Source of the DNA: Byssothecium circinans
Taxonomy: Eukaryota > Ascomycota > Dothideomycetes > Pleosporales > Massarinaceae
DNA: 64,000 bases
Assembly: GCA_010015675.1 (NCBI GenBank)
Contig: ML976997.1
Coordinates: forward strand, 534,431-598,430
Direction of reading: 5' to 3'
This document shows, piece by piece, positions 55,754 to 59,348 of this stretch (within the stretch, counting starts at the first letter, position 1; every line of letters begins with the position of its first letter). A model generated the notes under the pieces. That model was not told the origin of the DNA. It was given only the letters and a program-made list of their open reading frames with translations, and made no database searches. The position numbers were made by a program, and so were the translations under genes.

Positions 55754-56027
55754 CTAAACTCGTCCAAAGTCCGTCCCCCGCATCTCAGCCAAACGCGCAT
55801 CATCCCTTCGTCTGTCTCTATACTCGCGCAATTGACGGTAGTTATGAAGATCGGTCATGAGGGCGTCGACGAGGTAAAACACGGCGCCGAATAAGACCAG
55901 GCTTGCGAATAGGATGATGATGAGCCAGCCTGGGAGGCGGTGGGAAGGTGGGACGTCTGTGATGGTGGGTTAGCATGGTTGAGGGAAGGGAAGGAGGGGG
56001 AGGGCTACCGGATTTGTTGAGGGGCAT
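55754..56027 (-). CDS. Small single-pass membrane protein, two exons
   Basis: Minus-strand exons 56027-56009 and 55956-55754 (52 bp intron, GTAGCC...CACAG, with GCTAAC branch site, phase 1) give 73 residues. Six residues from exon 1 (MPLNKS) join DVPPSHRLPG. A transmembrane helix (WLIIILFASLVLFGAVFYLV) follows, then a charged tail (NYRQLREYRDRRRDDARLAE). The long open frame visible on this strand is a different frame, so the gene is easily missed. No family is recognised. It is same-strand with the next two genes up to the UstYa-like gene. Confidence 0.65.
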
Positions 56028-56253: not shown

Positions 56254-56598
56254 CTACACAGTGTACCCCCTCCTCGCTCCCTCATACGCCGGGGGCACAT
56301 CCCCGCTCTCCACTATCCCAACCCCACTCTTAGCCACAGTCTCGTAGAGAGGTAGCGTATCCACACTTCTAGCAACACTCCTAGCTGCATCTCGCCTCCT
56401 TACCTCCTCCTGCACCCAAACCTCATCGTCGTTTTGGAACAAATATTCAGGTAGCGGGTATTTGCGCAGTATGTACCATATGATTCCGACGAGGAGAGCA
56501 AGTCCAAGGCATGATGCAATGGTGATTAGGATACGGGTAGCGGAAGTTTGTACGCCTTTCGGGAGATGGGACTCCTTGTGCTTGGAGAAGGGGTCCAT
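56254..56598 (-). CDS. Single-pass membrane protein with PPxY motif
   Basis: 114 residues from ATG 56598 (MDPFSKHKESHLPKG). One transmembrane helix (ILITIASCLGLALLVGIIWY) at about 24-45 is followed by a charged cytosolic or lumenal tail ending in VPPAYEGARRGYTV. PPAY fits the PPxY motif that binds WW domains of Nedd4/Rsp5-type ubiquitin ligases, so regulated trafficking is possible. An in-frame ATG at 56802 gives an unlikely leader. No family is recognised. It lies between the smaller membrane protein and the UstYa-like gene, all on the minus strand. Confidence 0.6.
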   Translation of the reverse strand: MDPFSKHKESHLPKGVQTSATRILITIASCLGLALLVGIIWYILRKYPLPEYLFQNDDEVWVQEEVRRRDAARSVARSVDTLPLYETVAKSGVGIVESGDVPPAYEGARRGYTV

Positions 56599-56910
56599 GA
56601 TATTGGTTATTTGGGGCTGGACGGTGTGGTATGGTGGTGGGGTTTGGGTGCGCTGTTTTGGATGGGGGATTGCGCTGTTGGTAGCAAGGTGGGCTTTACG
56701 GAGAGTAATATTTTGCAAAGAACGTTCTAAATCAACGTACAGGGAGAAGTGGAGAGTGTGTGTGAGTGTGAGCGAGAAAGGTGTTGGCATACACAAGTCC
56801 ACACTATAATCGACGTGTTGACCATGTCAAGGTATCATCGACTACATCGCGAAGCTGAGAGGTGTGTCAAAAAACGTCGCTTAGCAAACTGTTCCTTCTA
56901 TTCACTTTAT

Positions 56911-58106
56911 TCACAAATTGTTATCCACATCCAGCGGCAACCCGTGACCTTCCGGCTTTGGCTTATGGTTTGGATTCTCAAAGCCCCAATACTCATAATA
57001 TTGATCCGCGGCTGGAAGCTGCTTGACGCCCGGCTTGATCATTTCACCCATCTTCATGACTTCCACGTACTTGTCCATGTCGATCGTGTTCGCCTTGCGC
57101 CATTCGGTGAATTTGTCGAAGTTGACGCATTGTTTGTTGATGGACCTTCACACATGGCGTCAGTGAGATATCCTTTGTCATAATTGAGGGATTGAGTTTT
57201 GAAATGAAAGGGGAATGAAGAGAGAACAATAGGATTACATGTCTGGGAACGGATACTGCTGCGTCTCGATCCAATGCAGTGGAATGAGGTCGAGGTTTGC
57301 GTTACACTGGATGTGTTGGAGAAGGATGTCGATGCAGTGGTTGATGTGGATCTCGCGCTGCTTCATCTTATCTGCGCGAGCGCGGCTTTGGTTATCTGTT
57401 TATCACGGTCACAATCAGCATCCTGGTTCTGATGTTCTTGGTTAGGATTACCCACAATACTCCCCGTAAGCGTGATGTCGCAGCGAATTCAAGCAGTGAA
57501 CCTATTTTTACCGCCATTAGTTTTGTTTTCACACTCTTTGGATTACGTTATTCTCACTTGATGATACGCGTCAAAGATAGTGGCATACGAATCATTGCCC
57601 AATCCCCAGATCTCGTCTTCCAATTTCGCCACCGTTGATGGATCAGTTCCCATTTTGATGATATCTTCACGCGTAGCCGGGTACACGCGTGTTAGTTCCC
57701 ATTCGTCCCAGATCGCATCGTCTTCTGGGTTAGGGAGACGACGCGCGATTCCACTGCCGCCTCGTGGAGGGTAGAATGAGCCGTTGATCTTCTTGGTTAC
57801 CGGCTCCAAGTCAAATTGCGAGAGTACGGGACTGTATGGTGATATTCGGCGGTAATCGGCATTGATAACAAAGTGTCGGGAGTAAAAGTATGTGACAAAG
57901 AGTGTGCTGGAGAGAATGAAGAAGCAAAGGTTGAGTATCGACACGACGAATAGTGTTGTTCGGCTTATCGAAGTTTCGCTTGAGCGATGATGACTGTGCT
58001 TTTCATTCAAGAAACCTTTTGTTTCCTCATCATCTTGCTCTGAAGATGAGTCGCGATTTGATGTAGTCGCCAACGGATTGTACTCAAACTTTCGGAAAAG
58101 GCCCAT
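56911..58106 (-). CDS. UstYa-like (DUF3328) oxidative cyclisation protein
   Basis: Minus-strand exons 58106-57558, 57501-57456, 57395-57239 and 57145-56911 (introns of 56, 60 and 93 bp) give 328 residues. UstYa-family proteins carry out oxidative cyclisation or other oxidation of peptide cores in fungal RiPP pathways, and occur in other secondary-metabolite clusters. The layout is typical: a cytosolic N-terminus, a transmembrane helix (TTLFVVSILNLCFFILSST, about 50-70), then the conserved domain. It has both HxxHC motifs: H182-Q-V-H-C186, split across the first intron, and H215-I-N-H-C219. IPLHWIETQQYPFP follows. The gene is divergent from the repeat precursor at 58995, about 0.9 kb away. That pairing is the main reason to infer a RiPP locus. 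A role in some other pathway remains possible. Confidence 0.88.
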
Positions 58107-58994
58107 ATTGACGTGAGGAAGAATGGGTGAGAACCAGAGGGAGGATGGAGGTCGTGGGAAACAAAATTTACCCCACTGGGGACTGGCATGTTCACCGGTG
58201 ACTAACTATGCTTGCAGTCATATGACGCCCATTAACGGACGAGTAGATAACGACATCTTGGCATGTTGCAACAACGAGCCTTCCAACACATTCACTATTC
58301 TCGATCAAGAAGCCATCATCAATAACATTGATGTTCCTGTCAGATCCTTCATGCAAGGCTATTCGGTTCCCTGCTTAACCCACCAATCACAAACTCATGC
58401 ATCCTTCAAATGGAAAGATGTCGCGAGACGTCTAGAATTGATCGGCGTGTAGGTGCATCGCAGCTCCTACAGATGATCACATGGTGCAGGTCTTAGCCGC
58501 TCAGCTTGTCAGATATAAGCCTTCAGGCAACCAACCTGCCTAATAAGGATACCCATATGTATATCAGTCTGAGTAAGAGAGGGGAAATTATTTCATCAGG
58601 TAAAGCGGGCTGCATTGTAATATAGTGACAACAATGGCCCTGGTAGACGGTATGATCCAATATGGTATGGCTTCGTGTGTGCTGTGCTAAGCTTTCTTGA
58701 CGAAATCTTGCTTGAATGCTTTGTGACAGCTCGCGCTCTTAGCGCTGCTTGATGTAACTTTATCATTGGTGTCCGGCGTTGACTTCGGGTTGGATAGACG
58801 GTAGAACATGGCAAAAAGGCAAATACCTTGATAAAAGGCGTCATTGGAGGAACTGCCAAGATATAACGATCACTGATAACATGCATCCTATAAGAACCAT
58901 ATCCCCCATCGTTCATCGATCCCACACCACCTCGGTCTCAACCAACAAGTCTCCCATCAAACCCTTCTACCCTTCTACCCTTCTACCGATCACC
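58107..58994. promoter_or_regulatory. Divergent intergenic region of the putative RiPP pair
   Basis: About 890 bp between the UstYa-like gene and the precursor gene, possibly a shared control region. A frame at 58123-58452 (plus) has no family content and is not called. No clear TATA was seen for the precursor apart from a weak CTATAAG near 58887. Confidence 0.45.
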
Positions 58995-59348
58995 ATGCGT
59001 TTCTCCAGCCTTGCTTTTGGCCTAACGGCCCTTTTCTCCACCATGGTGGCTGCCGCCCCCATCGACGTTTCTAAGCGTCTTCCCACTCCTGAGGAATTCG
59101 ACCTCCTCTCTTCCGTAGAGAAGCGTGCCGTCTACCAAGCATGGTACCGCGCTACCAACATCATCCCCGCCACTGACGAGGAGAAGCGCAGCCTTGACGA
59201 CAAGCGTGCTGTCTACCAAGCGTGGTACCGTGCCACGAACATTATCCCTGCCACCGATGAGGAGGAGAAGCGCAGCCTCAATGACCGTGCTGTGTACCAG
59301 GCGTGGTACCGCGCTACCAACATCCTTCCTTCTACTGATGAGGAGTAA
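58995..59348 (+). CDS. Putative Kex2-processed repeat precursor (dikaritin-type RiPP)
   Basis: Single exon, 117 residues from ATG 58995. A signal peptide (MRFSSLAFGLTALFSTMVAA) and a leader with KR at 27-28 come first. Three copies of a 19-residue repeat follow (residues 45-63, 72-90, 99-117), each starting AVYQAWYR and ending TDEE. KR pairs precede the first two repeats (43-44, 70-71) and follow them (64-65, 92-93). Only NDR precedes the third. Repeats 1 and 2 are identical as protein although 9 of 57 bases differ, all silent. Repeat 3 has I to L and A to S changes. In dikaritin pathways such a precursor is cut by Kex2 and the Tyr-containing core is cyclised by UstYa proteins. Here a UstYa-like gene is divergently adjacent. 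Other possibilities are a peptide pheromone or a secreted repeat effector, but the alpha-pheromone pattern is absent. Which residues form the final core is unknown. Confidence 0.8.
   Translation: MRFSSLAFGLTALFSTMVAAAPIDVSKRLPTPEEFDLLSSVEKRAVYQAWYRATNIIPATDEEKRSLDDKRAVYQAWYRATNIIPATDEEEKRSLNDRAVYQAWYRATNILPSTDEE
59127..59345 (+). repeat. Three-copy 57-bp coding repeat of the precursor
   Basis: Copies begin at 59127, 59208 and 59289. The linkers between copies are 24 bp each, the first holding two KR codon pairs and the second one KR pair plus a single Arg codon. Confidence 0.9.

What the first reader, a model, noticed from the sequence alone, without database searches (positions are those of the whole stretch)
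56911..59348. Divergent UstYa-like gene and Kex2-repeat precursor: candidate new dikaritin-type RiPP locus
The precursor has a signal peptide and three 19-residue repeats bearing two Tyr and one Trp, with KR sites. The adjacent gene has both HxxHC motifs of the UstYa family. This pairing is the known signature of ustiloxin-, phomopsin- and asperipin-like pathways, but the repeat does not match any core I recall. No methyltransferase, P450 or tyrosinase gene is seen nearby, so the locus is compact.
Basis: partly seen in the sequence, partly recalled or inferred. Interest (0 to 1): 0.9.

Follow-up and report, generated by a model that had tools for sequence, protein, structure and literature searches.

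The report
Fungal peptide precursor with dedicated oxidase
This fungal locus pairs a small secreted-peptide gene with the gene for a copper-type oxidase that probably modifies the peptide, and relatives in several other fungi carry both genes with an almost unchanged peptide core, which suggests an undescribed family of modified fungal peptides.

Summary
A UstYa (DUF3328) gene (minus strand, four exons, 56911-58106, 328 aa, both HxxHC motifs) lies head to head with a 117-aa precursor gene (58995-59348) holding three 19-residue cores. Searches listed 52 other precursors and 81 UstYa relatives. Seven precursor hits list the same longest-contig length as a UstYa hit (0.17 expected by jitter); two pairs carry consecutive locus tags (Ascochyta rabiei, Paraphaeosphaeria minitans). 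Twenty of 27 precursors on contigs of 4 kb or more had no such match, so linkage is shown for some relatives only.

The triplication is unusual: 42 of 53 family members have one core, so surveys that require three repeats would miss them. And YR[A/S]TNI, in 52 of 53 proteins, is the conserved feature, not 'two Tyr and one Trp'. I propose that the UstYa enzyme oxidises the core in the secretory pathway, probably by a Tyr-based cross-link, and that cleavage after Arg releases it. Chemistry and role are untested. It is a new variant of a known kind, the dikaritin-type RiPPs; four core strings searched in the held papers gave no hit.

The parts
57558..58106 (-). UstYa-like gene, exon 1: N terminus, one transmembrane helix, domain up to HQ of the first HxxHC motif
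   Evidence: the TM helix is inferred from the AlphaFold model of the homologue P0038 (helix 49-80)
57456..57501 (-). UstYa-like gene, exon 2: VHC of the first HxxHC motif, then LNSLRHHAYGEY
   Evidence: splice junction agrees with homologues
57239..57395 (-). UstYa-like gene, exon 3, with the second HxxHC motif HINHC at 57334-57348
   Evidence: His and Cys of both motifs invariant in the 39 homologues (of 81) aligned
56911..57145 (-). UstYa-like gene, exon 4 and stop codon
58107..58994 (.). 888-base intergenic region between the two divergent start codons, a possible shared promoter
   Evidence: coordinates; the promoter role is inference
58995..59348 (+). precursor peptide gene, single exon, 117 aa
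58995..59057 (+). signal peptide, about 21 residues (MRFSSLAFGLTALFSTMVAAA)
   Evidence: hydrophobicity rule and conserved N terminus; cleavage site inferred, no SignalP available
59079..59126 (+). leader LPTPEEFDLLSSVEKR between two KR sites; PTP[ED][EQ]F occurs in 41 of 53 family members
59127..59183 (+). core copy 1, AVYQAWYRATNIIPATDEE, preceded and followed by KR
59208..59264 (+). core copy 2, AVYQAWYRATNIIPATDEE, preceded by KR and followed by E-KR
59289..59345 (+). core copy 3, AVYQAWYRATNILPSTDEE, preceded by NDR (no dibasic site), at the C terminus

Best explanation
The locus is a two-gene, dikaritin-type RiPP locus. The precursor enters the ER by its signal peptide. The adjacent UstYa-like protein is membrane-anchored with its two HxxHC helices in the lumen, and oxidises the core around the conserved YRATNI, most likely making an intramolecular cross-link from the Tyr of YRATNI (perhaps to the following Ile, as in ustiloxin-type Tyr-Ile links). 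Cleavage after the conserved Arg by Kex2 or a like protease, then trimming of basic residues, releases a roughly 19-residue oxidised peptide that is secreted. Shown here: both gene models, selection on the core, both HxxHC motifs, and co-occurrence in some relatives (same-length contigs, consecutive locus tags). Inferred: localisation, cleavage, the modification and the bond. The confidence given is for the pairing with oxidative modification of any kind; the cross-link part alone I put at about 0.5, and the second rival lies inside the 0.8.
For: UstYa match and both motifs. Seven same-length contig pairs, two with consecutive locus tags. In a quick tree of 81 hits plus the window's protein, the seven partners, the window's protein and Cytospora schulzeri span one clade of 40 rows (SH-aLRT 100); 0 of 42 rows outside it have such a partner (Fisher P 0.0044; the clade was defined by spanning these rows, so this describes rather than tests). 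In a smaller tree of 46 rows the matching clade of 28 has 99. In this genome the core pattern occurs only in this gene: 3 hits, reversed-pattern control 0. Its UstYa has no close paralogue here: the next match by score is 29% identical, the remaining ones 25-37%. YR[A/S]TNI in 52 of 53 members; at least two Asp/Glu in the 9 residues after 66 of 68 cores. In the model of homologue P0038 (mean pLDDT 77.9) helices 179-195 and 211-228 hold the two HxxHC motifs, as described for the copper enzyme CctR in PMC12435403 (first of three parts of the text read). PMC9233826 (passages) describes Tyr-Ile cross-links made by UstYa-type enzymes in dikaritins.
Against: Clathrospora has both genes, but on contigs of different length (50,315 and 131,752), and for Pyrenophora tritici-repentis the listed lengths also differ (3,961,536 and 2,796). 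Lophium, Mytilinidion, Pleomassaria, Alternaria atra, Pyrenophora seminiperda, Cytospora mali and C. chrysosperma have a named precursor hit but no UstYa hit bearing their name; Melanomma, Neocucurbitaria, Neodidymelliopsis and others show the reverse. The distance correlation of the eight pairs is not significant (rho 0.52, P 0.058). 18 of 68 cores lack KR/RR within 8 residues upstream, copy 3 here included. Of the 39 clade members beside the window's protein, 8 show one HxxHC motif and 1 none, by length probably fragments. There is no product, expression or mass evidence.
Confidence: 0.8

Rival explanations
1. The precursor gives an unmodified linear peptide (a pheromone- or hormone-like signal), and the UstYa gene beside it acts on something else.
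For: The core is strongly conserved: WYRATNI is invariant in the 32 proteins (of 37 hits) of alignment A1, YR[A/S]TNI occurs in 52 of 53. A single core is unusual for dikaritins, whose precursors average 5 repeats according to PMC10512285 (passage). 20 of 27 precursors on contigs of at least 4 kb show no UstYa match.
Against: Seven same-length contig pairs, two with consecutive tags. PMC7329392 reports that almost all mating-factor and pheromone genes, with three exceptions, lack a DUF3328 neighbour (abstract).
Confidence: 0.1
2. The two genes form a functional pair, but the UstYa-like enzyme does another oxidation (hydroxylation, desaturation or chlorination) rather than cyclisation.
For: DUF3328 proteins are implicated in halogenation, hydroxylation and macrocyclisation, and CctR was shown to hydroxylate (PMC12435403). 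UstYa homologues are needed for desaturation as well as cyclisation in phomopsins (passage of PMC10512285).
Against: Asperipin-2a, which has just one DUF3328 protein (PMC7329392 section 7), is cyclised. The Tyr of YR[A/S]TNI is kept in 52 of 53 members, and Tyr is the linkage residue in ustiloxins, phomopsins and asperipin-2a (PMC7329392 section 7).
Confidence: 0.3
3. Chance adjacency: one of many UstYa genes in this genome happens to lie beside an unrelated repeat-protein gene.
For: The genome has 56 UstYa exon matches. Only 2 of the 20 other UstYa stretches read, of about 36 other places by my count, hold a Kex2-repeat ORF by the same scan.
Against: Same-length contig pairs and consecutive tags in other genera. 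By the same scan no other such ORF lies in the rest of the window or the next 20 kb.
Confidence: 0.03

Closest known systems
Ustiloxin and phomopsin dikaritins
   Same: Signal peptide and Kex2-bounded cores (PMC7329392 abstract); UstYa-family neighbours (section 7); Tyr in the core, often with Asp nearby (passage).
   Different: Core YRATNI instead of YXIX (passage); one UstYa gene instead of 2 or 5 (section 7); no tyrosinase on the contig; one to three cores instead of the 16 of ustiloxin B (passage of PMC10512285).
Asperipin-2a
   Same: A single DUF3328 gene (PMC7329392 section 7).
   Different: Its core, FYYTGY (recalled, from no call), is unrelated.
Epichloecyclins and victorin
   Same: Multicore precursors thought to be Kex2-processed; a Tyr-Ile link is reported for epichloecyclins (PMC9233826 passages); both counted as dikaritins in PMC10512285 (passage).
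   Different: Those precursors are multicore, while 42 of 53 members here have one core; their core sequences were not compared in any call.
KEX2-processed repeat proteins (KEPs)
   Same: The window's precursor has three repeats with Kex2 sites.
   Different: Both surveys require at least three repeats (PMC7329392 section 13; PMC6339444 section 24), so the 46 of 53 members with one or two cores would fail. None of the new conserved motifs printed in PMC6339444 section 10 matches.
Ascomycete alpha-pheromone precursors
   Same: Small secreted Kex2-processed peptide (PMC6339444 abstract).
   Different: A UstYa gene is adjacent here; pheromone genes almost always lack one (PMC7329392 abstract).

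Membership tests
Dikaritin RiPPs | DUF3328/UstYa protein with two HxxHC motifs (class-defining enzyme, as reported in PMC12048977, passages) | tested here: met
   HQVHC and HINHC; Pfam UstYa 39.7 bits on the frame holding exon 1, cut-off 25
Dikaritin RiPPs | Precursor with an ER signal peptide | tested here: met
   Hydrophobicity rule and conserved N terminus; no SignalP available, so the site is inferred
Dikaritin RiPPs | Several cores separated by Kex2 sites | tested here: met
   In this window three cores, KR before two of them. Not met by the 42 of 53 family members with one core
Dikaritin RiPPs | Precursor and UstYa genes close together | tested here: met
   Start codons 888 bases apart here; same-length contig pairs for 7 of 52 relatives
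Dikaritin RiPPs | UstYa-dependent cyclised product | not testable with these tools
   No mass or expression data
Dikaritins in the 2015 five-gene sense (quoted in PMC12048977, passage) | Tyrosinase in the cluster | tested here: not met
   No tyrosinase match on contig C21 (30 of 30 candidates scored). The same passage reports working clusters that lack one or more of the five, and a later definition by the DUF3328 protein
Dikaritins in the 2015 five-gene sense (quoted in PMC12048977, passage) | Methyltransferase in the cluster | tested here: inconclusive
   No Methyltransf_25 match on contig C21, but 50 of 95 candidates were scored and other methyltransferase families were not searched
KEX2-processed repeat proteins (PMC7329392 section 13) | At least three tandem repeats of at least 8 aa between KR, KK, RK or RR sites | tested here: inconclusive
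   Three repeats, but the third lacks its own dibasic site (NDR)
Ascomycete alpha-pheromone precursors | No DUF3328 gene beside the precursor (a strong trend with three exceptions in PMC7329392, not a strict definition) | tested here: not met
   UstYa gene adjacent

The most novel reading that the evidence does not exclude
YRATNI peptides are a conserved, usually single-core, oxidatively modified peptide signal of Dothideomycetes (also found in Cytospora), not a lineage-specific toxin: a hormone-like RiPP made by a precursor and one dedicated copper oxidase, triplicated in this fungus.
Probability: 0.3. Interest if true: 0.8.

Novelty: new variant of a known kind. Interest (0 to 1): 0.6.

Why it matters
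The two large surveys of such precursors looked for at least three repeats. A UstYa-linked family that mostly has one core, yet keeps that core nearly unchanged across at least three orders, would mean that repeat-based mining misses part of the field. A nearly invariant core also gives a clean substrate for working out what bond a single UstYa enzyme makes, and raises the question of whether some of these peptides are signals rather than toxins.

Tried and rejected
First splice model: a 320-aa UstYa with a later acceptor for exon 3. Homologues of mostly 327-329 aa showed that the acceptor lies 24 bases earlier, giving 328 aa. The homologue search used the 320-aa version.

Distance correlation between the eight precursor-UstYa pairs was not significant. 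Viral contigs gave no relative of the UstYa. No solved structure matched by sequence (E up to 1) or by fold (0 matches at E <= 0.001). A published core was looked for and not found in the held library: (four core strings, anywhere in the text, 0 papers); some searches were topic searches whose listings I read. Supplementary tables could not be read, so a three-repeat member may be listed there unnamed.

A wider control with all UstYa places and random stretches was planned; only 20 stretches were obtained, so the background rests on those, the window and the next 20 kb. The scan needs at least two similar Kex2-bounded pieces and a crude signal-peptide rule, so it cannot see single-core precursors.

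Full report
What is there. The window is G000:C21:534431-598430 of an unnamed 48.4-Mb, 109-contig genome; from the relatives it is a fungus of or near Pleosporales (inference). On the minus strand, 58106 down to 56911, is a four-exon gene for a 328-aa UstYa/DUF3328 protein. Its first HxxHC motif is split by intron 1; the second lies in exon 3. On the plus strand, 58995-59348, is a single-exon gene for a 117-aa precursor: signal peptide, a KR-bounded leader LPTPEEFDLLSSVEKR, and three 19-residue cores. The start codons are 888 bases apart and face away from each other. KR precedes cores 1 and 2; core 3 follows NDR.

Is it more than chance? Cores 1 and 2 differ by 9 nucleotides, all synonymous (P 1.3e-6); pairs 1-3 and 2-3 also lean synonymous (P 0.011, 0.004). 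One search lists 37 proteins at E <= 1, the window's own included; a profile of 25 of them lists 53, again with the window's own (only the 7,999 candidates sharing most words were scored). In this genome the core pattern gives 3 forward hits, all in this gene, and 0 for the reversed pattern; a homologous precursor gives three matches, all in this gene.

The family. Of the 53 precursors, 42 have one YR[A/S]TNI core, 4 have two, 6 have three and one has none; the last is the Ascochyta rabiei protein P0127, whose annotated model ends before the core. Some single-core entries are fragments or odd gene models (for example P0015, P0129, P0033), so 42 is an upper bound. Among 68 cores the residue before YR is Trp in 59, Ile in 8 and Thr in 1; the residue four before the Tyr is Tyr in 53, Phe in 13 and Leu in 2. 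So 'two Tyr and one Trp' describes this member, not the family. At least two Asp/Glu stand in the 9 residues after 66 of 68 cores, and an Arg lies 4-8 residues upstream of the Tyr in 64 of 68, but KR/RR within 8 residues upstream in only 50 of 68: the named Cytospora forms have EARK. The leader motif PTP[ED][EQ]F is in 41 of 53.

Co-occurrence. One search lists 81 UstYa relatives. The database shows the longest contig of each cluster of proteins; equal lengths link seven precursor hits with a UstYa hit: P0009/P0049, P0010/P0055, P0030/P0046, P0031/P0093, P0033/P0068 (Setomelanomma holmii), P0119/P0060 (Paraphaeosphaeria minitans, tags PMIN03_007071 and 007070) and P0127/P0053 (Ascochyta rabiei, tags EKO05_0010179 and 0010178). 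That is 7 of 52, or 7 of the 27 on contigs of at least 4 kb; jittering the lengths by up to 10% gives a mean of 0.17 and a maximum of 3 in 20,000 draws. That equal length means the same contig is an inference, a strong one where the tags run on. In a quick tree of the 81 plus the window's protein, the seven, the window's and Cytospora schulzeri span a clade of 40 rows (SH-aLRT 100). None of the 42 rows outside has a same-length partner (Fisher P 0.0044); as the clade was defined by these rows, this describes rather than tests. The named rows outside are mainly Xylariales and Hypocreales (orders partly recalled), but also two Pleosporales, P0098 and P0115. The window's genome has one close member; the next match by score is 29% identical.

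Against linkage: 20 of 27 are unmatched; Clathrospora has both genes on contigs of different length, and so, by the listed lengths, has Pyrenophora tritici-repentis; seven named species with a precursor, among them Lophium, Mytilinidion and Alternaria atra, show no UstYa hit under their name, and several with a UstYa show no precursor. The database is clustered at 90% identity and small genes are often missed in annotation, so these absences are weak but unresolved. The distance correlation of the pairs is not significant.

Neighbourhood. Pfam was run on 29 of the 61 window ORFs of at least 140 aa (listed) plus one smaller ORF, and on 8 of 9 ORFs of at least 150 aa in the next 10 kb. Found: an amidase upstream, an F-box protein downstream, and farther off sugar transporters, a HET-domain protein, a SacI-type phosphatase, an alpha/beta hydrolase, a beta-helix protein, an APH-type phosphotransferase and a fungal rhodopsin-domain protein. 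Genome-wide searches put no tyrosinase, P450 or Methyltransf_25 match on this contig; the last two scored only part of their candidates.

Mechanism. CctR, a DUF3328 hydroxylase, is a membrane-bound copper-dependent dimer; its HxxHC(x)nHxxHC motif forms the copper centre and its C-terminal domain is proposed to lie in the organelle lumen (PMC12435403, abstract and first of three parts of the text). The model of homologue P0038 (mean pLDDT 77.9, from 39 of the 81 homologues) has a long helix at 49-80, then helices at 179-195 and 211-228 that hold the two motifs, which agrees. Known dikaritins link Tyr to Ile, or use Tyr residues otherwise, through UstYa-type enzymes (PMC9233826 passages; PMC7329392 section 7). 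The simplest reading is that this single UstYa enzyme oxidises the YRATNI region of the precursor in the secretory pathway and that cleavage after Arg releases the peptide. Tyr-to-Ile is my guess for the bond; another oxidation is quite possible.

Novelty. No paper in the held library contains WYRATN, YRATNI, AWYRAT or SWYRAT. The two KEP surveys required at least three repeats (sections read), and the new conserved motifs printed in one of them do not match. Supplementary tables were not readable. A 2025 lichen paper names a single core peptide as one possible reason for finding no repeats (passage). The family reaches at least Pleosporales, Mytilinidiales and Diaporthales (for Cytospora, Melanomma and Lophium; other orders recalled). 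I rate it a new variant of a known kind.

Noticed in passing
L020:7272 (plus strand), G000:C9 about 1181771: Another Kex2-repeat-like precursor (195 aa, repeats of VPDADTSYERFQDDVNR) within about 4 kb of two UstYa matches: a second candidate RiPP locus in this genome.
   Followed up: partly
L029:6150 (plus strand), G000:C37 about 257849: A third candidate: 180-aa precursor with about nine repeats around QDDGWKISKR, under 1 kb from a UstYa match.
   Followed up: partly
G000 whole genome: 56 UstYa exon matches in about 37 places by my count, against 9,399 DUF3328 counts in 1,461 strains in PMC7329392 section 7, about 6 per strain by my division. 18 of the 20 other stretches read show no Kex2-repeat ORF by the scan; single-core precursors may hide there.
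   Followed up: no
P0061 (Cytospora schulzeri); P0130, P0131 (Cytospora mali, C. chrysosperma): Cytospora, a sordariomycete genus, carries both genes, though in different species of the lists; its UstYa groups with the Pleosporales clade rather than with the other Sordariomycetes: horizontal transfer or an old duplication.
   Followed up: partly
P0121, P0123, P0004: Some precursors carry a diverged extra copy (IYRPFEF, WYRPVQF) beside YRATNI, so a second core type YRPxxF may exist.
   Followed up: no
P0125 (Alternaria atra): A UniRef name calls this family member an 'RxLR effector protein', very likely a naming artefact.
   Followed up: no
window 56257-56826 and 55754-55969 (minus strand): Two small ORFs, each with one hydrophobic stretch by eye and no Pfam family, lie just beyond the 3' end of the UstYa gene; whether they belong to the locus is unknown.
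   Followed up: no
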